Shown in pieces: positions 1,370 to 26,205 of a stretch of 64,000 nt of DNA; the stretch's first letter is position 1; every line of letters starts with the position of its first letter. Under the pieces are notes generated by a model that searched no databases, was not told the origin of the DNA, and saw nothing but the letters and a program-made list of their open reading frames with translations. The translations under genes and the position numbers were made by a program. Origin of the DNA: Opitutaceae bacterium EW11 (GTDB lineage Bacteria > Verrucomicrobiota > Verrucomicrobiia > Opitutales > Opitutaceae); contig QAYY01000011.1 in the NCBI GenBank assembly GCA_003054665.1, positions 470,654 through 534,653 on the forward strand, in the 5' to 3' direction.

Positions 1370-4300
1370 GTGAGCGCGCCGTCCAGTTCGGGAAAACTGA
1401 TGGCCGAAATCCGTTACGCGGACGATCGGTCCGCCGTCAGCCGCGTATGGAATCGCCCGATACACCAGTTCTGGCACCTGCTCGAGCCGCATTTCGAAAA
1501 CCTCTGGCTCGCTCCCCATCGGCGAAGCGACGGGGCGGGAGTCTTCTGGCTCTGGAAGCCGCCGTCGGATTCCCGTCCGCCGTCCTCCTCGGAAATGGCG
1601 GACTTGAGAAAGAAACTGAACGACGCGAATCGCCGCCTTCTCGACGGGCCGGTGGGCATCAGCGACGATGAGCGGCGCGCCGGCGGCGCGACGGACGAGA
1701 TGGTGAAGGAACTCGCCGCGCAGGCTTCGCGCATCGTGGCTCACCTTGTCGGAAAATCGGATTCCGACCTGGCTGCCTACGTCTGCCGCACCGACGCGGG
1801 CATCCGCATTCACAGCTGGGGTTCCTCCATTCCCGCGCAGCCCTACGACCCGGCTTCTCAGCGATGGGAGGTGAGCGGGACGGTCCTTGTTTCCGGAAAA
1901 CCGTCGGCGGGGCACGTCGTTCGCCTGGAGAACCGGAAGGGTCTGCGTTTCGGCGAAACGCGCTCCGATGCCCAGGGACAGTTCGTTTTCGAGGACGTAT
2001 CCGCCGGCAACTACCGCGTGAGGGTTCTGGCCGACCGCGTTCCTTTTCCGTCAAAGGGGCAGAACGTCCGCATCGAAAACGAATCCGTCACGGGCCTGGA
2101 ACTCCACAGCAGTTCCATCATCGACGAGCCGGAGGACGAGGACCCCGACGACGCGGAGTCGTCCGAAGACCGCGACGAGGGAACACCACCCGATGCGGCT
2201 CCGGCTGCTGTTCCCCCGCAGGCCGCGGCGTCCGCCCCCGACCCTGGGCAGTCAGGAGGGAAGTCCCGGCGCGTGGCGTTATGGGCGCTCCTGCTGCTCT
2301 TGCTGCTCGCGGGCGGTGTGGGAGGGATTTGGTACGGTGTATATCACGGGCATCCGAGGGGACCGCAGCGCGACGAGCGGATCAGCACGATCACCGTGGC
2401 GGGCGACCTCGCGCCCGAAAAGGCGACGCCGGTTTCGGAAGTACATCGAACAGGAGCGGGAGTCGGGGAGGGCTCTTCGGCTGCCGGTTCCGGCGCATCG
2501 AGCTCCGGCCGGGACGTTCAGGCCGTGGCCGAACCCGAAGCGCATGTCGGCCGAGTCGCGTTGCACGTCCCCCGCGTGACCGCTCCTCTGGGAGTCCAGC
2601 CTGCCGTGATGCCCAGCGGTATTCCAGGCGCGCCGGGCAATGCGGTGCCGCTGGCCGGAGCGCCCAGCGGGGTGGCGCCTGCATCGGCTGCTCCGACGCC
2701 TGTATCGAAGAAAGCAGGACAACTCTCAAAGTCCGGCGTCGTGCCCGAGAAGAAAACGGCGCGTCCGCAGCCGGTCGCTGTCGTTGCACAGCCGCCGGCC
2801 GCGAAAGAATCCGAGGAGGACGAGGAAAGCCACGCGGACGCTCCCGCCGCCGAGACTCCCGTCACAAGGGAGCAGAAAACCGTTGCCGAGAAAGACCGCG
2901 CGACCGCGACGGCCAAGACACAGAAGACGTCGCCGAAGGATTCGCCGGTGCGTGCCGACCCGGCTTTGCCGGAGCCCGAAAAACGAGGACTGAAGCCGAC
3001 GTTGGCGGCGAAGAAACCGGGACGGAGTCGTCCCGCCGCCGCAGCCCCGGCGACATCGATTGTTTCCCCCTCTGCTGATCGCTCGTCGTCCGATGCGGGC
3101 GCGGCCGCAGAGCAGCAGGACGCGCTCTCTGGCCACGGAAAACAGGGAGGAGATGGGCTGGGCATTCAAGCGATCGACGACGCTCTTCCTGGAAGCGAGC
3201 GTCCCGTCGGCCCCAACTCGCCGCCGCCTCCGCCCAGCGCTGCACGTTCGAAGGCCGCCCGTCCGAGTTCGGCATCGGCACCGACGACGGCTGCGGACAT
3301 CAGTCCCGATCCGGAACCTTCCACCGAGACAATCGCTCGCACCGCATCCCCGGCACGCGCGACCCTCGCTCCGGCGAAGCGCACTCGGGGCTCCGCGTCC
3401 GCTGGGTCAGCCCCGGGAGGCTCCTCGGGCAATCCATCCGACGCAGTCAGTGGTTTGGGGGCAGCGGTGCCGGCTGCATCCTCCGCCGTCGCGGCTGCGT
3501 CTGGCGAAACGGCTAGTGCCGAACCCGTCGTCGAAGCTGCTGCCGAAACCGACGATCCCACCGCGACACCCGGCGACACTTCGGCAGCCGCTGCAGCAAA
3601 AAGGAACGGTTCGACGAATTCCGCCGGCGAAGGAGGCACGCCCGGCACCGCTGCCGGATCTATCGCGAACAACGGCGGTGCGCCGTCGCCTGCAGCCGCG
3701 ACAGCACCGTCGACCGTTCACACCGATTCCCAACGCACTTCCGCTTCGAAATCCTCCGGTGCCCGCGGTGAGGGCGGTGCGGCGTCTGCCGCTGGCGACG
3801 CTTCCGCGGGTGCTTCCGTATCCGAAACGTCCGGACATTCCTCCGGAATGTCGGAGCCGACGGATTCCAGCCCTGCGGATGCGGAGCACACCGGAACGCC
3901 GGGAGCTGGTGCGTCGCCCGCCGCAAGCCCAGGCGGCGCCGACTCCCGCGCTTCGTCTGACGCCGTGAGCGGCGCTTCCTCCGCCGGGCTGGCTGATGCG
4001 TCCGGTTCGTCCGCGGATGCGGGCAGCACCGGTCCCGGCACGGCTTCGAAGGGCGCGCAGAGCGGATCGATGCCGAGAGGCGTTCAACCAGGGCAAGCCG
4101 CCGGCCGCTCCGCCGCGGCACCGTTAAGCGCGGAGCTGTATTTCGGCGGGTGGAAGCCGAAAATCGCGCGAGACGTGATCCTGCCGACGTTGCCCACGCG
4201 GACCGGCGAAGACGACGCGGTGGACGCGGTTCGGCGCGAGACGCAGAAAGCAGAGGAACTCCGTTTGCCGATCCTCTTCAGAAACCCGCGTGGACATGGC

Positions 4301-4810
4301 GGAATCGTTTTCACGCTGGACTCGGGCGACACGTCGACGGCAGCGCGTCTGCAGTGGACCGATGAAAAAGGCACACCGCTGGCGGCGGGCAGCGTCGAAG
4401 GCGCCCGTGCGGAGCTTGGCTGGAGAGGCGAAGTGCCCCGACTGGCGAGTTGCGTCCTTCGCACCGAGAGCGGAGCGGAACTTGCCCGTGTGGCATCCGA
4501 CGCCGAAGGGCATCTCTCGTTGTGCGCCTCGCCCGGCGTGCAGGCCTGGCTGTGGGTCGGCCTGGAACGGCCGTCGACCGAATACGAGGAGCCTGCCCGC
4601 GTGCTGTGGACCAACCGGCTTGGCTGGCGTGCGAACGGAAATCGGCCGGTACCGCCCACCTGGATACGCGACGATCGCTGGATGAGCGGCCGAGGCCATC
4701 GCCTGACGATTCCCATCACCGCCGTCGCCGAAGACGCCCCACCGATCTCCCTCTCACTGGTCGATCGTGAAACCGGCTGGTCCCTCTCCTGCACCCTCGT
4801 GGTGCACTGA
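1370..4810 (+). CDS. Long Ala/Ser/Pro/Gly-rich single-pass membrane protein with Cna/carboxypeptidase-regulatory-like domain
   Basis: The product has 1146 residues, starting at a GTG preceded by a GGAGG ribosome-binding site (1359-1363). Residues 1-160 form a cytoplasmic region with a helical stretch. Residues about 165-245 look like a carboxypeptidase-regulatory/Cna-B fold (VSGTVLVSGKP, then DAQGQFVFEDVSAGNYRVRV). An acidic linker (EDEDPDDAESSEDRDE) precedes one transmembrane helix at about 303-325. Residues about 330-915 are low-complexity, dominated by Ala, Ser, Gly, Pro and Thr, and probably a disordered or cell-wall-spanning stalk. Residues about 919-1146 form a compact domain with another Cna-like pattern (LARVASDAEGHLSLCASPG). 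The topology places the stalk and C-terminal domain outside. I infer a surface or periplasmic stalk protein; the function is unknown. Confidence 0.7.
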   Translation: MSAPSSSGKLMAEIRYADDRSAVSRVWNRPIHQFWHLLEPHFENLWLAPHRRSDGAGVFWLWKPPSDSRPPSSSEMADLRKKLNDANRRLLDGPVGISDDERRAGGATDEMVKELAAQASRIVAHLVGKSDSDLAAYVCRTDAGIRIHSWGSSIPAQPYDPASQRWEVSGTVLVSGKPSAGHVVRLENRKGLRFGETRSDAQGQFVFEDVSAGNYRVRVLADRVPFPSKGQNVRIENESVTGLELHSSSIIDEPEDEDPDDAESSEDRDEGTPPDAAPAAVPPQAAASAPDPGQSGGKSRRVALWALLLLLLLAGGVGGIWYGVYHGHPRGPQRDERISTITVAGDLAPEKATPVSEVHRTGAGVGEGSSAAGSGASSSGRDVQAVAEPEAHVGRVALHVPRVTAPLGVQPAVMPSGIPGAPGNAVPLAGAPSGVAPASAAPTPVSKKAGQLSKSGVVPEKKTARPQPVAVVAQPPAAKESEEDEESHADAPAAETPVTREQKTVAEKDRATATAKTQKTSPKDSPVRADPALPEPEKRGLKPTLAAKKPGRSRPAAAAPATSIVSPSADRSSSDAGAAAEQQDALSGHGKQGGDGLGIQAIDDALPGSERPVGPNSPPPPPSAARSKAARPSSASAPTTAADISPDPEPSTETIARTASPARATLAPAKRTRGSASAGSAPGGSSGNPSDAVSGLGAAVPAASSAVAAASGETASAEPVVEAAAETDDPTATPGDTSAAAAAKRNGSTNSAGEGGTPGTAAGSIANNGGAPSPAAATAPSTVHTDSQRTSASKSSGARGEGGAASAAGDASAGASVSETSGHSSGMSEPTDSSPADAEHTGTPGAGASPAASPGGADSRASSDAVSGASSAGLADASGSSADAGSTGPGTASKGAQSGSMPRGVQPGQAAGRSAAAPLSAELYFGGWKPKIARDVILPTLPTRTGEDDAVDAVRRETQKAEELRLPILFRNPRGHGGIVFTLDSGDTSTAARLQWTDEKGTPLAAGSVEGARAELGWRGEVPRLASCVLRTESGAELARVASDAEGHLSLCASPGVQAWLWVGLERPSTEYEEPARVLWTNRLGWRANGNRPVPPTWIRDDRWMSGRGHRLTIPITAVAEDAPPISLSLVDRETGWSLSCTLVVH

Positions 4811-18904: not shown

Positions 18905-21511
18905 CTACTTGTTTTTCGGCGGAGGATTGTTCTTCCAGAGCCGGTAGTTGATCGTCACCTGCACGTCGAAGCTCGGGACGTACGGAAGGTTGCCGCGGTA
19001 GTCGAAGGTCTTGGAGCCCTCCACGTAGTCCTGCTTCCCGTCGTTCGGCTCGATGATGGTGAAGCTCGAGGGCGAAATGTCGCCGAGCAGGCTCAGGTAT
19101 TCGGCGCCCGACTTGTTCGAGGAACGTTTCGCGTTCTGCTCGGAACGAGAGACCAGGCACTCTGCGCCGAAGAACGGCTCGAGATCGAGGGTCATGAAGC
19201 CGCCGTTGAACATGAGCGACGCGTTTCCGCTCGGCTCGGCGCGCGAGTAGCGCGCGAGCTGATTGTAGCCCGGCGGCTGAATCTGGAGCGGGCCCGAGGC
19301 GTCGTAGCGGTTGTTGCTGTTCTTGGTGCGGGCGCTGGAGGAGTCGTTGAGGCGGAAATACCGCGAGTCGCCGTCGACCTCGAGGCGATGACGACCGTCG
19401 TTCGCGTAGTCCTTCTGCTCCTCTTTTTCCTCGTCCCAATCGGGGGTGTGCAGGCGGCCTTCCATCTTGCGATCCATCTTCCAGGCATAATCGGCGTCAG
19501 GGCCGCCTTTTTCCCCTTTCTCGTGCTTCGAGCCGGAGGCTTTCACGACAATTTCGAATTCCCCCTCCCAAGCCGGCTCTTTCCAGTCGGTGACTTCGAA
19601 CACGCGGCCTTTCTGGAAGAAGAACGACGTCCGCATGATCATGTCGGCGATGAAGCCGAGCGTGCCGTTCACCGGCCCGCCCATCGCGGTGTTGATCGCG
19701 TCGTTCAGGTCCTGCGTGAGATTGCCGACCTTCATCGTGACCTCCACCGCGATGACGGCGCGGCGCGGATACGGGCGGACGGAGGCCGAGAGCTGTTTTC
19801 GCTGGGGAACGCCTTCAATCTGGATCGTGGCTTCGCCTGCGTCGTCGGTGCTCGAAACATAGCCCGCTCCCTGGGCGAACTGCACCACGGCGAGCTCGGG
19901 CTTGTATTCCCAACCGCCTTTCGAGGTCTGGTATTTCGTGTTGTAGCTGCCTTCCGGCAAACGCCAGACGACCTTCGCGCCGCTGACGGGACCGCCGTCC
20001 GGCATCTGGAGGTCGATGGTGGTGAGGTTGCCGGCGGCACGGATCGCCTTCAGGACATCGCTCTTCGGAAAGTCGATCGCGACCTTTGCGCGCGCCGTGC
20101 GCTGTTCGCCGGGCGAACGCGTTTTGGTTCGGACGAGCGGAGCGTTTTCCACCTCGACGGTGATGTTCTGCCGGGCGACCGACATGATCGTTTTGAACCA
20201 GGCGATGATCGTGTTCGCGATGCCCACGCCCTCGCTGAACTTGCTGTCCGGCAGGTGATGCTCGAGGAGCTTGCCGGTGTAGGCGCCCCAGCCGGTGGCC
20301 CAGATGTCGCCGGCGGCGCCGGAGAACTGGTCGGAAAACGACGACGGCGCCGGCCCGGAAATCTGGGCGAGGCCGATCACGGCGACGGGAAAGAAAGGAG
20401 AGGAATTCAGGCTGACCGGACGTCCCTTGGTCCGAAGTCCCTGCTGTGCGGCGAGGCGGATGTCGGCGGCGAATACGCGCGAAATCAGGGCGACCTGGAG
20501 CAGCGAGAGCGGCTGGTCGCGCCATTCCGCGGTGAAACGAGCGCCGTCGGCCTCGCCCGAGTCCTCCTCGTCCGAAGCGTCACCGTCCTGGGATTTCTGA
20601 TACCGCTGCATCGCGGCCGACATCTGTTGCATCTGCGCCGCTTGCAGGCGCTGGGAGAGGGCGGACATCTCGGCGGTGAGCTTCGCCATTTTGTCCTTCG
20701 CAGCCTGCAACCGGGCCTTGTCCTGGCTGCCGAGGTCGGCGCTGAGTTGTCCCATCTCCTGGGAAATCTCGCCGAGGCGCTTCTGGTCCCTCTCGAGCGT
20801 GCTTTCTCGGGTGTCGTTCTCGGAGCGCTTGGGTTTGGGCGAGGGTGCGAGGACCGGATCGTCTTTGGCCCAGACGGGCGTCGGCCTCATCGCCGCCATC
20901 AGGGCGAAGGGATTCTGCGCGGCTTGTTTCTCCAGTTGCTTCAGCCGGCTCTTGCTCGGCGGAATCGCCGACGGTGGTGCGGGCGAAAGGAGATCGTAGT
21001 TCGCCGGGGAAACGCGTCCGAGGGCGGCGACGAAGCGCGCCCAGAAACGCTGCTGGGGCTGGGAGCTTTCGGCGGATTTCCGAAGCGTTTCCACGAGATC
21101 CTGCGCGAGTTCCTCCGGGTCCGCGTCCTTGAAAGGCACCGCGAGCGCCTGCGCGTACGAGATGAACCGGATGGCAGGTTGTTCGCTCGGTTTCCAGAGG
21201 AGCTCCTCCAACTCGTAATCCCGCATGGCCAGACCCGTATCCGCTCCGGCCGGCGGAGCTTCGAGCACGGCTCCCTTTGCATCGCGGATACCCCAGCCCA
21301 TCCGGCGGAGCGCTTCGTGCAGCGCCTCTTTCGAGCCGTTTCCACCTTCCAGGTACCGGCGAGCCAATACCAGCGCCACGGAGTCGGAATCGTCGGGCAG
21401 CGAAGCGGCTGGAGCGGCGGGGGGCTCTTGCGCGAAGAGAGTCGCGGCGGCGAAAAACGCGGCGAAAAAACACCGGGAAACGGCGCGGAAACGGAGGGGC
21501 AGGCGAGACAT
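18905..21511 (-). CDS. Large exported protein with coiled coil and Ig-like segments, unknown function
   Basis: The 868-residue product has a signal peptide (MSRLPLRFR..., cleavage after LFAQ near residue 27). Residues about 220-320 form a predicted coiled coil (QKRLGEISQEMGQLSADLG, then LTAEMSALSQRLQAAQMQQM). About residues 430-640 include Ig-like strands (LQMPDGGPVSGAKVVWRLPEG, DDAGEATIQIEGVP). The C-terminal 150 residues contain Asn/Ser-rich stretches and a final strand series ending in YRLWKNNPPPKNK. No enzymatic motif is seen. Its stop is one base before PBP2, and the rhombosortase gene lies 107 bp upstream, so it may be a cell-envelope protein tied to wall growth. Confidence 0.7.
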   Translation of the reverse strand: MSRLPLRFRAVSRCFFAAFFAAATLFAQEPPAAPAASLPDDSDSVALVLARRYLEGGNGSKEALHEALRRMGWGIRDAKGAVLEAPPAGADTGLAMRDYELEELLWKPSEQPAIRFISYAQALAVPFKDADPEELAQDLVETLRKSAESSQPQQRFWARFVAALGRVSPANYDLLSPAPPSAIPPSKSRLKQLEKQAAQNPFALMAAMRPTPVWAKDDPVLAPSPKPKRSENDTRESTLERDQKRLGEISQEMGQLSADLGSQDKARLQAAKDKMAKLTAEMSALSQRLQAAQMQQMSAAMQRYQKSQDGDASDEEDSGEADGARFTAEWRDQPLSLLQVALISRVFAADIRLAAQQGLRTKGRPVSLNSSPFFPVAVIGLAQISGPAPSSFSDQFSGAAGDIWATGWGAYTGKLLEHHLPDSKFSEGVGIANTIIAWFKTIMSVARQNITVEVENAPLVRTKTRSPGEQRTARAKVAIDFPKSDVLKAIRAAGNLTTIDLQMPDGGPVSGAKVVWRLPEGSYNTKYQTSKGGWEYKPELAVVQFAQGAGYVSSTDDAGEATIQIEGVPQRKQLSASVRPYPRRAVIAVEVTMKVGNLTQDLNDAINTAMGGPVNGTLGFIADMIMRTSFFFQKGRVFEVTDWKEPAWEGEFEIVVKASGSKHEKGEKGGPDADYAWKMDRKMEGRLHTPDWDEEKEEQKDYANDGRHRLEVDGDSRYFRLNDSSSARTKNSNNRYDASGPLQIQPPGYNQLARYSRAEPSGNASLMFNGGFMTLDLEPFFGAECLVSRSEQNAKRSSNKSGAEYLSLLGDISPSSFTIIEPNDGKQDYVEGSKTFDYRGNLPYVPSFDVQVTINYRLWKNNPPPKNK

Positions 21512-21618: not shown

Positions 21619-22275
21619 TCAGCTCGCGTTGCTCTCGCGTGCCGGGACATTGCGGGCCGCCCGCATGCGTGGCAGAGGTAAAGCGGCACCGGGGACGAGC
21701 ATCGCGACCAGACCCGTCACCGCGCCGAGAAGATGAGCCAGCGGAACAGGACGGAAGCCGGCGGCGCCGGAGTCGACGAATACGGTGGCGCCCGTGTGCA
21801 GTTCGAAACCGCATTTGGCGAGAAACCCGAGCAGCGCGGCGCTGGCCAGCAGACCAAGCTTCAGGTCGCCTCGCCGCCGGGACAGCGCGAGGAGGTGGGC
21901 GCAAACCATGGCGAAGAGTGTCGAGTCGAGGCCGGAGAGCCCGCGGTACGTCGCGAGATCCGGTTGAAACCAGATCACGCCGAGCGAAATGACCACGGCG
22001 CTCATCCCGAGCGAAACGAGATAGCGGGTTCGGCCCAGGCGCTCGACGAAAACGCCGAGCCCGACAAACGCGGCGAGATCCCAGACGAGGTGATTCCAGC
22101 CGAAATGGGTGAGATGACCCGTGGCGAGGCGCCAGGCCTCGCCGGTCGAGAACGCGTGTCGTTCCCACTCCAGGAGCGAATCGGCGCCCGGAACGACTGC
22201 GACAGCGAGCACGGCTGCGGCGATCAGAAACGTGGCCCAGGGCAGGGGGCGGTGTGGGATGGACGAGGCGGGCAT
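21619..22275 (-). CDS. rrtA: Rhombosortase-type rhomboid intramembrane serine protease
   Basis: The 218-residue polytopic protein has about six hydrophobic segments. It has the rhomboid layout: TGHLTHFGWNHLVWDL (His54, Asn61, His62), the nucleophile motif RGLSGLDS (Ser114) and a late catalytic His181 in PLAHLLGAVTG. The short length, GLSG in place of GASG, and lack of extra domains match the rhombosortase (RrtA) subfamily, which processes GlyGly-CTERM proteins. The neighbour transcribed just before it encodes a protein with just such a tail. I infer that it cleaves that protein; other rhomboid roles are possible. The start ATG has no clear Shine-Dalgarno site. Confidence 0.8.
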   Translation of the reverse strand: MPASSIPHRPLPWATFLIAAAVLAVAVVPGADSLLEWERHAFSTGEAWRLATGHLTHFGWNHLVWDLAAFVGLGVFVERLGRTRYLVSLGMSAVVISLGVIWFQPDLATYRGLSGLDSTLFAMVCAHLLALSRRRGDLKLGLLASAALLGFLAKCGFELHTGATVFVDSGAAGFRPVPLAHLLGAVTGLVAMLVPGAALPLPRMRAARNVPARESNAS

Positions 22276-22472
22276 GGGAGTCGGAGAAGTTCGAGTCGCG
22301 ACGGGAGCGACAGAGGGAGCGTTTCGTTCGGCCGAGGGTGGCTTTCGACTTGCGAGCGCCCTGGGAAATCGGAGCGGAGGAGACCTCGTGCAGAACTCCT
22401 CCCCGTGCGAGGGCTGGAATACCGGGACGCACGAGGAGGAGAGGTTGGGCGAGGCGAGGGCGTTGGCGATTG

Positions 22473-24500
22473 TCAGTTCTTGCCGTCGACCGTCGGTTTC
22501 GTCGCGGCGGCGCGGCTCAAGTACACGCCGAGGATGAGAAGGCCGAACAGCGCGAGGTTGATCGCATCGAGTTCAATCGCGCCGCCGCCGCCGCCGCTCG
22601 AGTGGCTGACATGCGGCGCCGGAGCCGAGTAGGTCGGCTGGGCGGTATCGACGCGGTAGTTCTTCACCGGTTGGGCGGCGCGGACGGCCTGAGCCTGGTG
22701 TTCCGCGGCGACGCGCTTCTGGTTCTCGCGGGCGATGCCGCGGCGGGCGAACGAGGCGTCGTCGAGCATGATCATCGAGGTGTGATCGGTCACCAGTTGG
22801 TATTTCACGCCGAGGTCCTGGATCGCGTCCTTCGTTTCGCTCGGAGGCATTTGTCCGATGCTTTCAAGGAGTTCGATCCGCTCGATGCGGGCGAGGGCCC
22901 AGAGGCGTTCGATCTCGGGATTGTCGGTATCGGTCTCCGGGAACTCGAAGTTCGTCGTGTAGGTTTTGTCCTCGCCGGTGAGCTTGGCGTTGAGCGTCAC
23001 CGTGGCTTTGCCGGCGCCTTCGTAGCGGCCGAAGACCACGAGCTGCTGACCGCGGTAGATCTTGTTCGGCACGTCGCCGGTGGTGTCGAAAACGCGGGCG
23101 CCGGTGAACTTGAACGAGGCGTCGTGCAGCGATTCGTAGGCGATCTTGGATTTCGCGAGCAGGATCTGGCCGATGATGTCGTCGTCGTTCGAGACGCCCG
23201 CGTAGAAACCGCCGGACGCGTCGGCCATCGTGCGCATCAGCGGCCAATTGGCGTTGTTGCCCATGAGGAAGCCGAAGACGCGAACGTCGGCGGTCTTGAG
23301 CAGCTTGTGGAAAGCGACGGGGTCAACGACGCCCTGGTTGGCGACGCCGTCGGTGACGAGCACGACGCTCGTGGCGCGGTCGGCGTCGACGCTCTGGAGC
23401 GCGAGTTGGAGACCGGCGAAGAGATTGGTGCTGCCGCTGGAGGCGAGACCCTTCACGAGTCCGATGGCGTTCTGGACGTTTTCCGGGGTGGCCGGAGTCC
23501 AGCCGACGACCTGGCGGGCGTTGTCGTTGAAGCAGACGATGCGGAAGCGATCTTCGGGCCGCATCGTGCCGAGCGCCTTCTCGACGCCCGAGGCGAGCGT
23601 CTGGATCTTGCCCTGCATCGAGCCGGAGACGTCGAGCACGTAGACGTAGTCCGCACCGTGCGTGATCGGCTTCAGGTCGAGGCCCGGCGTTACGACCATC
23701 ATGAAGGTGCCGGGTTTGTCCTTGGATTCACGATACGGAACGACTTCGACGCGGCCCGGGAGATTCTCGGCGAGCCGGTAATAAAACACGAAGTCGCGAT
23801 CCAGCTTGGCGCCCTGACGGTCGAGGGTGACGAGGTAGTCGCCTTCGCCGTTCTTCTTCACGACGGCGGACGACTCGAAGCTCGGGACGCGCACGTCGTT
23901 CACCGGCCAGACCGACTTCAGGTGAACGTTGATCGAAAACGTGCCCTCGACGGTGTTGTTGGCCGTCCAGAAGCTCTTCGCGACCTCGTCGGTGCCGCCG
24001 TCCTCGAGCGGATACAGATAGCGGCCGACGCCGGTGTCGATTTCCAGCGGTTGGAAATAAACGAAACGCAGCTTTACCTCCGAATTCGCCCGGACGGGCG
24101 CGACGCGAAACTCGTAGGTCTGGTAGCCGTTTTTCGTCGCGAGGCCGGTGTCGTTGCCCGCGGCTTTCTCCTCGGCGTACACGGTCTCGGCGTCCTTCTT
24201 CGGCAGAACCTCGCCGTTGAGCGTCTTCTCGCCCGTCACGATCGTGACCTCGGACAAGCTCGCGCTCTTCGGCACAGGAAACGCATAGACCGCTTCCAGG
24301 TCGGTGCCGTTGGGATTGAAGAACGTCTGCAGGACCTCGGTTTGCGCGAAGCCGTTGTTGATCGTGACGTTCACCTGATGATCGCGGATTTGAATCGCGG
24401 CGTGCGGCGAGCCCGTCGGAGTCAGCGTGCCACCCGCCCAACTGAGCGTGGCGGCGGCGACGAAGGCGACCGCGGAAAGGAAGAGCGTTCGGAGTTTCAT
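22473..24500 (-). CDS. VIT and VWA domain protein with GlyGly-CTERM-like tail
   Basis: The 675-residue product starts at the ATG of a good signal peptide (MKLRTLFLSAVAF..., cleavage after SWA). A VIT domain (about 25-150) is followed by a VWA domain (about 283-460) with an intact MIDAS motif, Asp290-x-Ser-x-Ser. Later residues form a mixed domain with helices. The tail has five Gly (636-640), AIELDAINLA, a hydrophobic stretch and a weakly basic end (SRAAATKP), which is the GlyGly-CTERM layout. This family of VIT/VWA proteins is often a target of sorting enzymes. It is probably cut by the adjacent rhombosortase and released or anchored at the surface. The gene has no strong Shine-Dalgarno site. 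Confidence 0.88.
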   Translation of the reverse strand: MKLRTLFLSAVAFVAAATLSWAGGTLTPTGSPHAAIQIRDHQVNVTINNGFAQTEVLQTFFNPNGTDLEAVYAFPVPKSASLSEVTIVTGEKTLNGEVLPKKDAETVYAEEKAAGNDTGLATKNGYQTYEFRVAPVRANSEVKLRFVYFQPLEIDTGVGRYLYPLEDGGTDEVAKSFWTANNTVEGTFSINVHLKSVWPVNDVRVPSFESSAVVKKNGEGDYLVTLDRQGAKLDRDFVFYYRLAENLPGRVEVVPYRESKDKPGTFMMVVTPGLDLKPITHGADYVYVLDVSGSMQGKIQTLASGVEKALGTMRPEDRFRIVCFNDNARQVVGWTPATPENVQNAIGLVKGLASSGSTNLFAGLQLALQSVDADRATSVVLVTDGVANQGVVDPVAFHKLLKTADVRVFGFLMGNNANWPLMRTMADASGGFYAGVSNDDDIIGQILLAKSKIAYESLHDASFKFTGARVFDTTGDVPNKIYRGQQLVVFGRYEGAGKATVTLNAKLTGEDKTYTTNFEFPETDTDNPEIERLWALARIERIELLESIGQMPPSETKDAIQDLGVKYQLVTDHTSMIMLDDASFARRGIARENQKRVAAEHQAQAVRAAQPVKNYRVDTAQPTYSAPAPHVSHSSGGGGGAIELDAINLALFGLLILGVYLSRAAATKPTVDGKN

Positions 24501-24530: not shown

Positions 24531-24546
24531 TGCTGGACCGATGCCA
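24531..24546 (-). promoter_or_regulatory. Candidate sigma-54 (-24/-12) promoter of the VIT/VWA gene
   Basis: On the minus strand the sequence TGGCATCGGTCCAGCA has the invariant GG and GC doublets 11 bases apart, as in TGGCAC-N5-TTGC. The -24 half matches TGGCA; the -12 half keeps only the GC (AGCA instead of TTGC). Transcription would begin near 24520, leaving a 20-base leader before the ATG at 24500. The adjacent divergent gene encodes a sigma-54 activator, which supports this assignment. Confidence 0.4.
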
Positions 24547-24624: not shown

Positions 24625-24639
24625 GTACATCCGATGTAC
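24625..24639. promoter_or_regulatory. Perfect palindrome, candidate enhancer (UAS) of the sigma-54 activator
   Basis: GTACATC-C-GATGTAC is a perfect 7-bp inverted repeat with a one-base centre, flanked by direct repeats GTGACA (24613-24618 and 24641-24646). Its centre lies about 110 bp upstream of the predicted start site of the VIT/VWA gene, within the usual range for enhancer-binding sites. It also lies just upstream of the activator's own start, so it may serve for autoregulation. Confidence 0.5.
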
Positions 24640-24654
24640 GGTGACATACATTCA

Positions 24655-26205
24655 ATGGCTATCACTGCTCCTCTGCTGCAGCCGGACGATCGCGCGTTCG
24701 CGGAGGCGATTCTCCGAGTAAACGCCTCAAATCCCTTTCTGCCGGAGCGGATCGAGGCGGAGCGGGAGGCACTGGGTTCCGCGTTTGAGACCCAGGAGGC
24801 AGACTGGAACGCGCGGCCGCCGCTTCCGGAATCGCCGCCGAACGTGAGCAAAATCACGGAGCGGTGCCGTGCGTTGATCGAAGGAGCGCGGACCCGCTGG
24901 CCTCGCGACGGCAAGGTGTCGCGCCGGGATGCCGAGCTCTACGAGGAAGTGGTCGGGTACTGGTTGTACCAGACCTACTCGGCCGGCTTTGACCGCATCA
25001 TCCTCGCCTCGCTGGAAGGACGGGGCGACGGCGGGCGGGTGGACTTGTTTCCCACGTTCCGGGCGGAGGTGGAGCGGTACTACGGCCTGCCGGGACTGCA
25101 GACGCTGAAAGCCGAGCCCGCGGCGCATCTGTTCGCCTGCGCGTTTCAGATCCGGCGCGCGTTTCACAACATCTTCCGCTTCCTGATCGGCGGATCGGCA
25201 CCGATGGCGAGGCTTCGCGCGGCGATCTGGGAATCGATCTTCACCCACGACCTGAGGCGGTATCGGAGAAGTTTATACGCACGGATGGGCGACTTTTCGA
25301 CCCTCATCACCGGTCCGTCCGGCACCGGCAAGGAGTTGGTTGCCCGCGCGGTGGCGTTTTCCCGCTACATCGCGTACCAGCCGAAGCAGGCCGGCTTCGC
25401 GCAGGATTTCTCGAAAGGTTTTTTCCCTCTCAACCTCGCCGCGCTTTCGCCGACGCTGATCGAGTCGGAACTCTTCGGACACCGACGCGGCGCCTTCACC
25501 GGAGCCTTGGTCGACCGTCCCGGCTGGATGGAAATCTGCCCTCCGACTGGGGCGGTGTTTCTGGACGAGATCGGCGAAGTGGAACCGTCGATCCAGGTGA
25601 AATTGTTGCGCGTGCTGCAGTCCCGGACTTTTCAGCCGCTCGGGAGCACGGAGTACCGGCGGTTCGAGGGGAAAATCATCGCGGCGACGAATCGGGACCT
25701 TCCAAAGCAAATTCGCGCCGGACTTTTCCGGGAGGATTTCTACTACCGGCTTTGCTCCGATCAGATCGCGACGCCGTCGCTGCGAGAGCAACTGGACGAC
25801 GCGCCCGGCGATCTCGCGATGCTCGTGCTTCACGTTGCGACGCCGCTCATCGGCGCTGACTCGGCGGGCGGTTTCACGGACGAGGCTGTCGCCTGGATCG
25901 GAAAACACCTGGGACAGGCCTACGCTTGGCCGGGGAATTTCCGCGAATTGGAGCAGTGCGTGCGCAGCCTTCTGCTCCGGCGCGAGTACCGGCCTCCGAG
26001 CTCGTTGGCGGCGGCCGACGAAAGCGACTGGAATCGCCTGATCGAACGCGGCGAACTGACCGCGGACGAACTCGTCACGCGCTACGCCAAGGCGGTGTAC
26101 GGGCGGACGCACACCTACGAAGAGACCGCGCGTCGTCTCGGCCTCGATCGGCGCACGGTGAAGTCGCGCGTATCCAAGTCGACGGATACACCCGATCGGG
26201 CCTAG
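24655..26205 (+). CDS. Sigma-54-dependent enhancer-binding protein (transcription activator)
   Basis: The 516-residue protein has an N-terminal region (1-205) of unknown fold, rich in helices, that matches no receiver, GAF or PAS pattern. The AAA+ domain has a Walker A GPSGTGKE (220-227), the sigma-54 contact loop GAFTGA (279-284), a Walker B VFLDEIGE and an arginine finger in FREDFYYRL. The C-terminus has a helix-turn-helix (TYEETARRLGLDRRTVKSRV), which should bind the palindrome upstream. The ATG at 24655 was preferred over the GTG at 24613 because the latter would place the palindrome inside the gene. It is divergent from the VIT/VWA gene, which is its likely target. The signal sensed by the N-terminal domain is unknown. 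Confidence 0.9.
   Translation: MAITAPLLQPDDRAFAEAILRVNASNPFLPERIEAEREALGSAFETQEADWNARPPLPESPPNVSKITERCRALIEGARTRWPRDGKVSRRDAELYEEVVGYWLYQTYSAGFDRIILASLEGRGDGGRVDLFPTFRAEVERYYGLPGLQTLKAEPAAHLFACAFQIRRAFHNIFRFLIGGSAPMARLRAAIWESIFTHDLRRYRRSLYARMGDFSTLITGPSGTGKELVARAVAFSRYIAYQPKQAGFAQDFSKGFFPLNLAALSPTLIESELFGHRRGAFTGALVDRPGWMEICPPTGAVFLDEIGEVEPSIQVKLLRVLQSRTFQPLGSTEYRRFEGKIIAATNRDLPKQIRAGLFREDFYYRLCSDQIATPSLREQLDDAPGDLAMLVLHVATPLIGADSAGGFTDEAVAWIGKHLGQAYAWPGNFRELEQCVRSLLLRREYRPPSSLAAADESDWNRLIERGELTADELVTRYAKAVYGRTHTYEETARRLGLDRRTVKSRVSKSTDTPDRA

What the first reader, a model, noticed from the sequence alone, without database searches (positions are those of the whole stretch)
21619..24500. Rhombosortase beside its likely GlyGly-CTERM substrate
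The VIT/VWA protein ends in five Gly (residues 636-640), a hydrophobic stretch and a weakly basic tail, the layout of GlyGly-CTERM signals. The next gene on the strand encodes a short rhomboid with the GLSG nucleophile motif and His181 typical of rhombosortases. Established knowledge: rhombosortases (RrtA family) process GlyGly-CTERM proteins. The weak point is the mildly basic, partly acidic end of the tail. A dedicated one-protease/one-substrate pair in a probable Verrucomicrobiota genome would be of interest.
Basis: partly seen in the sequence, partly recalled or inferred. Interest (0 to 1): 0.75.

Follow-up and report, generated by a model that had tools for sequence, protein, structure and literature searches.

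The report
Rhombosortase paired with one surface protein
A bacterial membrane protease sits beside the one surface protein it most likely trims and anchors, and the pair, often with a gene switch upstream, recurs in several bacterial phyla; the basic pairing was already known, but this branch of the protease has an altered active-site region and often its own switch.

Summary
Confirmed. The rhomboid (21619-22275, -) passes the rhombosortase model TIGR03902 (121.7 bits, cut-off 84). The VIT/VWA tail does not hit TIGR03501, but orthologues carry clear Gly-run/helix/basic tails. The pairing is not chance: in 288 genomes of the phylum, 25 of 27 VIT/VWA orthologues have a rhombosortase directly downstream; the other two lie at contig ends. 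The pair recurs in Planctomycetota, Acidobacteriota, Lentisphaerota and Myxococcota. Dedicated pairs, and VIT/VWA homologues with GlyGly-CTERM, LPXTG or PEP-CTERM tails, were published in 2011 (PMC3237569), so the core idea is not new. New here, as far as I searched: (1) these enzymes lack the hallmark His four residues after the catalytic Ser (mostly Asp-Ser instead); (2) a divergent sigma-54 activator lies upstream in 45 of 80 named loci, with a promoter-like site in 44 of 46 regions and a palindrome in 37 of 43, so the unit is often a regulated three-gene module; (3) in Pelagicoccus-type genomes, DG1235 included, the GlyGly-helix is internal, which probably explains a 2011 anomaly. Processing itself is inferred.

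The parts
22473..24500 (-). ITIH-like VIT/VWA surface protein, 675 aa, signal peptide (by eye) and C-terminal GlyGly-type tail; predicted substrate
22476..22595 (-). C-terminal sorting tail: five Gly (residues 636-640), AIELD, helix (residues 645-667), mixed-charge end
21619..22275 (-). rhombosortase, 218 aa; catalytic Ser114 (21934-21936) and His181 (21733-21735); Asp117-Ser118 in place of the hallmark x-His
24531..24546 (-). sigma-54 type promoter-like site TGGCAT-N5-CAGCA reading into the VIT/VWA gene (good -24, poor -12 element)
24625..24639 (.). palindrome GTACATCCGATGTAC, probable activator binding site
24655..26205 (+). divergent sigma-54 activator, 516 aa, AAA+ domain with GAFTGA; homologues divergent from the pair in 45 of 80 named loci

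Best explanation
A dedicated surface-anchoring module under its own switch. The divergent sigma-54 activator binds palindromes between the genes and turns on a -24/-12 promoter for the VIT/VWA gene and the rhombosortase gene behind it (inferred from sequence). The VIT/VWA protein, folded like an inter-alpha-inhibitor heavy chain with an intact metal-site motif in its VWA domain, is exported by its signal peptide and held in the inner membrane by its tail. The rhombosortase, using Ser114 and His181, cuts within the Gly run and the new C-terminal Gly is joined to a lipid head group, as found for VesB in Vibrio cholerae (carried over by homology, not shown here). The protein then stays on the cell surface, where its VWA domain binds an unknown partner.
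For: TIGR03902 121.7 bits against a cut-off of 84, rhomboid fold closest to GlpG, Ser114 and His181 invariant in 36 of 36 aligned enzymes. Adjacency 25 of 27 in 288 genomes, Fisher p 3e-26 for co-occurrence. Enzyme within 0.84 kb downstream in 67 of 80 named loci; 6 of the 13 others have under 500 nt of sequence left. GGA-linked enzymes from several phyla lie in one branch of 52 rows, SH-aLRT 99. One rhombosortase over cut-off, one significant tail match and no rhombotarget lipoprotein in the window genome. Regulator divergent upstream in 45 of 80 named loci; promoter-like site in 44 of 46 regions against 5 of 46 on the reverse strand and 17.8% of shuffles; palindrome in 37 of 43 against a mean of 6.2 in shuffles; rpoN present. 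Heavy-chain fold: 6fpy, 600 alignment columns. Chemistry in V. cholerae: PMC6219818, abstract and passages.
Against: TIGR03501 does not recognise the tail: 0 of 23 tails hit it, 1 of 23 hit another GlyGly-CTERM model at E 0.09. The hallmark His at +4 is absent. The window tail ends TKPTVDGKN, only weakly basic. The window's own promoter-like site scores 12, a value that 17.8% of shuffles reach, with a poor -12 element. No secretin in the genome reaches the GspD cut-off (best 285.7 of 351.35), so the route to the surface used in Vibrio is not assured. The regulator is missing in 16 of the 52 GGA loci that could be judged, in 4 of 4 Pelagicoccus-type and in 4 of 4 judgeable gammaproteobacterial loci. 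L077 carries the tail while the only rhombosortase over cut-off in its genome belongs to another branch. G026, G069 and G099 have the VIT/VWA gene at a contig end and no TIGR03902 hit at E<=1e-12.
Confidence: 0.86

Rival explanations
1. The enzyme is a general rhombosortase that also serves further, divergent tails elsewhere in the genome; adjacency to the VIT/VWA gene does not make the system one-to-one.
For: TIGR03501 misses this class of tails (0 of 23), and the profile used was built from VIT/VWA tails only, so unrelated substrates could be missed. Four Alcanivorax-type genomes and one gammaproteobacterial genome have the protein with the rhombosortase elsewhere.
Against: One tail match in the genome at E 2.5e-24, next best 0.19. 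In 11 of 20 fetched loci around Opitutaceae rhombosortases not linked to VIT/VWA, my filter showed another Gly-tailed protein beside the enzyme. Of the 30 family loci returned for the best TIGR03902 matches, 4 of 4 Asp-Ser enzymes are VIT/VWA-linked and 0 of the 26 others.
Confidence: 0.2
2. The tail is an ordinary membrane anchor and the rhomboid has another job.
For: No GlyGly-CTERM model hit for the window tail and a weakly basic end.
Against: Conserved Gly run directly before the hydrophobic stretch and adjacency across phyla.
Confidence: 0.05
3. The altered active-site region marks a degenerate or inactive rhomboid.
For: Asp117-Ser118 replaces the hallmark x-His.
Against: Ser114 and His181 are invariant in 36 of 36 rows, and lack of the +4 His is shared by 52 of 52 rows of the branch and by the 24 other Opitutaceae-type rows, so it is not local decay.
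Confidence: 0.04

Closest known systems
Rhombosortase/GlyGly-CTERM dedicated systems (Haft and Varghese 2011, PMC3237569)
   Same: One enzyme beside one tailed target; VIT/VWA ('vault') homologues already listed among GlyGly-CTERM proteins; Opitutus terrae listed with an adjacent pair.
   Different: The O. terrae pair appears to be a different one: G003 (contig of 5,957,605 bases, which I take for O. terrae from its recalled size) has a rhombotarget lipoprotein (TIGR04179) pair and no VIT/VWA match at E<=1e-20. Hallmark His absent here. The words 'sigma' and 'RpoN' do not occur in the paper's main text.
Proteobacterial dedicated sortase system (TIGR03784/85/87/88)
   Same: Homologous VIT/VWA target (TIGR03788 218.8 bits, below its 551.65 cut-off), dedicated anchoring enzyme, dedicated regulators (model names).
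   Different: Sortase and LPXTG with a two-component system, instead of rhombosortase and Gly tail with a sigma-54 activator.
PEP-CTERM VIT/VWA protein with exosortase
   Same: Same protein family; a paralogue with a PEP-CTERM-like tail lies beside an exosortase-like gene in this very genome.
   Different: Different tail and unrelated enzyme.
V. cholerae RssP and VesB
   Same: Rhombosortase trims a Gly-type tail; C-terminal Gly joined to a glycerophosphoethanolamine moiety (PMC6219818).
   Different: Six GlyGly-CTERM proteins in the genome (PMC13393428 abstract); surface delivery by T2SS.

Membership tests
Rhombosortase (TIGR03902) | Score over the curated cut-off of 84 | tested here: met
   121.7 bits, residues 33-192
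Rhombosortase (TIGR03902) | Catalytic Ser in GxSG and His in TM6 motif AHxxGxxxG | tested here: met
   Ser114, His181, AHLLGAVTG
Rhombosortase (TIGR03902) | WRxxS/T motif in loop 1 | tested here: met
   WRLAT
Rhombosortase (TIGR03902) | His four residues after the catalytic Ser ('virtually all rhombosortases', PMC3237569) | tested here: not met
   Ser118. Also absent in 48 of 48 GGA-linked and 3 of 3 Pelagicoccus-type rows; present in 11 of 11 GPVG-linked, 4 of 4 Alcanivorax-type and 1 of 1 gammaproteobacterial rows (5 of 67 linked loci left out). Typical rather than strictly defining, since the model cut-off is passed, so filed as a divergent branch.
GlyGly-CTERM (TIGR03501) | Model score over 15.5 bits | tested here: not met
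   No hit at E<=10; none over cut-off in the genome; 0 of 23 orthologue tails
GlyGly-CTERM (TIGR03501) | Gly motif without Cys, transmembrane helix, basic end at the C-terminus; signal peptide at the N-terminus | tested here: met
   the basic end is weak in the window protein and clearer in relatives; signal peptide judged by eye
Dedicated rhombosortase system | Enzyme and target adjacent | tested here: met
Dedicated rhombosortase system | Only one target in the genome | tested here: inconclusive
   One significant tail match, but the profile is specific to VIT/VWA tails
Dedicated rhombosortase system | Enzyme cleaves the tail | not testable with these tools
   No experiment

The most novel reading that the evidence does not exclude
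An undescribed, widespread three-gene surface-display module: a sigma-54 activator, an inter-alpha-inhibitor-like surface protein and a rhombosortase branch with an altered active site (Asp-Ser for x-His) matched to its own tail motif, so that several rhombosortase/tail pairs can run side by side in one cell without crosstalk.
Probability: 0.5. Interest if true: 0.65.

Novelty: new variant of a known kind. Interest (0 to 1): 0.5.

Why it matters
It offers the simplest form of bacterial C-terminal sorting: one enzyme, one likely substrate, one switch. The same heavy-chain-like protein family has been given to three unrelated anchoring enzymes, and this genome holds two of the versions. Different tail and active-site motifs give a ready test of what sets rhombosortase specificity. 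The regulator suggests that surface display of this protein is switched on by a signal that can now be sought. It also offers an explanation of why DG1235 looked like a genome with an enzyme and no target.

Tried and rejected
Tail loss in Pelagicoccus: I first read these proteins as having lost the tail. Wrong: the tail profile hits inside the long ORF in 4 of 4; the GlyGly-helix is followed by a second hydrophobic stretch and an extension whose relatives are encoded between the pair in L109, L113/L061 (one genome) and L116.

Missing enzymes in G182, G104 and G081: one search listed no adjacent hit, but the enzyme is there with an insertion.

Repeated co-evolution of tail and active site: not shown. 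His-type and other enzymes are two sides of one branch, so the match of tail class to the +4 residue rests on one change, not on independent events. Asp117 as a third catalytic residue: not testable, as no model coordinates are given out.

Conservation of the 868-aa neighbour (18905-21511): no relative in the other loci searched, whose flanks reach at most 6 kb.

Rows dropped: from the 67 linked loci, L070, L074, L078, L101 and L119 (split domain, unread bases or frameshift) were left out; the first three show GLSGIDS and L119 GLSGLDS by eye. The palindrome pattern was taken from the same sequences it was counted in, and three upstream regions of 600 nt or more were left out there; the loci are related, so counts are not independent. 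In one search one promoter-like site lies 1226 nt from the start codon (L077).

Confidence lowered from 0.88 to 0.86 because G026, G069 and G099 are now told.

Full report
What is there. The VIT/VWA gene (22473-24500, -) and the rhomboid gene (21619-22275, -) are as described. The rhomboid scores 121.7 bits against TIGR03902, cut-off 84, and its model (mean pLDDT 91) is closest to GlpG. The VIT/VWA protein has both domains and invariant DxSxS, Thr358 and Asp384 in 16 of 16 aligned orthologues, which I read as the VWA metal site (recalled motif). Its model (mean pLDDT 79) best matches inter-alpha-inhibitor heavy chain 1, 6fpy, over 600 alignment columns, TM-scores 0.56 and 0.62. The tail is SGGGGGAIELDAINLALFGLLILGVYLSRAAATKPTVDGKN. 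TIGR03501 does not see it, nor any of 23 orthologue tails, yet the tails align as Gly run, mostly A-[IL], often an acid, a hydrophobic stretch and Arg/Lys. I take the organism for a member of Opitutaceae (Verrucomicrobiota) from its nearest named loci.

Pairing. In 288 genomes of the phylum, 27 hold an orthologue of the VIT/VWA protein at E<=1e-100 and 25 of these have a rhombosortase 56-772 nt downstream on the same strand; in the two others (G026, G362) the gene lies within 156 nt of a contig end. 26 of 27 genomes with the orthologue and 13 of 261 without it have a rhombosortase hit (Fisher p 3e-26). The one without is G026; G069 and G099, from the family sample, also hold the gene at a contig end and show no TIGR03902 hit at E<=1e-12. 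Among 80 named loci from several phyla, 67 have the enzyme downstream within 0.84 kb; of the 13 others, 6 have under 500 nt of sequence left and 7 have 5.6 kb or more without it: L077, L106, four Alcanivorax-type loci and L118. The genomes of all seven have a rhombosortase over cut-off elsewhere. The window genome has one rhombosortase over cut-off, one significant tail match and no rhombotarget lipoprotein.

Two tail classes, two active sites. Beside tails of the GGG-A-[ILFM] class the residue four after the catalytic Ser is never His (0 of 48 named rows). Over the 52 rows that include the window and three Pelagicoccus-type rows it is 34 Ser, 8 Cys, 4 Met, 3 Val, 2 Thr, 1 Ile, and the residue before it is Asp in 45 of 52. 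Beside GxGPVG tails it is His in 11 of 11, as in the Alcanivorax-type enzymes (4 of 4) and a gammaproteobacterium (1 of 1). The founding paper calls this His near-universal (SIMBAL section). On a quick tree of 92 enzymes the GGA-linked ones lie in one branch of 52 rows (SH-aLRT 99), the GPVG-linked ones in another (100), and the enzymes not linked to VIT/VWA (23 Opitutaceae rows and one from the genome of L077) in two more (98, 96). VIT/VWA linkage of the named rows is by construction; the check without that bias is the 30 family loci returned for the best TIGR03902 matches, where 4 of 4 Asp-Ser enzymes are VIT/VWA-linked and 0 of 26 others. Around the unlinked enzymes my filter showed another Gly-tailed protein beside the enzyme in 11 of 20 fetched loci and none in the other 9. 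Four of these proteins were run against family models: a rhombotarget lipoprotein (TIGR04179, 393.7 bits), a pectate-lyase-like Ig-domain protein, a matrixin-like protein and an NHL-repeat protein. The tail/active-site match reflects one change on the tree.

Regulation. A sigma-54 activator (PF00158, 151.5 bits) is divergent from the VIT/VWA gene in 45 of 80 named loci, in both tail classes, at 36-68% identity. It is missing in 16 of the 52 GGA loci that could be judged, in 2 of 9 GPVG loci that could be judged (in one more it lies elsewhere), in the four Pelagicoccus-type loci, in four of four judgeable gammaproteobacterial loci and in L119. In the 46 regions between the genes (window included) a -24/-12 site reading into the VIT/VWA gene scores 12 or more in 44, against 5 on the other strand and 17.8% of shuffles; the window's own site scores just 12. 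ACATNNNATGT with at most one mismatch occurs in 37 of 43 regions, mean 6.2 and at most 13 in shuffles; the window's copy is exact. The genome has rpoN. That the activator works on this promoter is inferred.

Fusion. In Pelagicoccus-type genomes, among them DG1235, the GlyGly-helix is internal: a second hydrophobic stretch and an extension follow, and relatives of the extension are encoded between the pair in L109, L113/L061 and L116. In L118 the enzyme is not adjacent but about 11.5 kb away. The 2011 paper listed DG1235 as having a rhombosortase and no GlyGly-CTERM (passages); the target was probably missed because its tail is not at the end.

Mechanism. By homology to V. cholerae RssP/VesB (PMC6219818, abstract and passages; PMC13393428, abstract): export, anchoring by the tail, cleavage in the Gly run, joining of the new C-terminus to a lipid head group, surface display. 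Shown here: gene content, linkage, conserved catalytic residues, conserved regulatory-site patterns. Inferred: cleavage, lipid attachment, surface location, activation. No secretin reaches the GspD cut-off (best 285.7 of 351.35), so the outer-membrane step is open.

What is known. PMC3237569 (outline, Results part 1 of 4, SIMBAL section and passages) already describes dedicated adjacent pairs, VIT/VWA homologues with three kinds of tail, and an O. terrae pair. G003, whose contig size I recall as that of O. terrae, has the rhombotarget pair and no VIT/VWA match. 'Sigma' and 'RpoN' do not occur in that paper's main text. My paper searches found no paper with both GlyGly-CTERM and sigma-54 or both 'dedicated sortase' and proteobacteria; 21 papers mention rhombosortase, of which I opened four (PMC3237569, PMC6219818, PMC13393428 and passages of PMC5300114). 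So: a known kind of system, in a divergent branch that often has its own regulator.

Noticed in passing
L220 (G000:C13:31500-37500), 2418-4466 and 1544-2464, both -: The window genome has a second VIT/VWA protein with a PEP-CTERM-like tail beside an exosortase-like gene (XrtQ 135.6 bits, below its cut-off of 270; exo_archaeo 34.2, over its cut-off of 23). In two relatives (L221, L223) a histidine kinase or response regulator lies near such a protein.
   Followed up: partly
L122 (DG1235), L125, L126, L118: VIT/VWA protein with an extension whose relatives are encoded separately elsewhere, making the GlyGly-helix internal; looks like a gene fusion.
   Followed up: partly
L180, L184, L196: Two rhombosortases in tandem in some Opitutaceae, of different branches; in L196 next to a matrixin-like protein with a Gly-rich tail.
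   Followed up: partly
window 18905-21511 (-): 868-aa protein downstream of the rhombosortase with no Pfam match at E<=0.01 and no relative in the other loci searched.
   Followed up: no
L077: VIT/VWA tail present with no Asp-Ser rhombosortase found; the only enzyme over cut-off in its genome belongs to the branch that holds the rhombotarget-linked ones.
   Followed up: no
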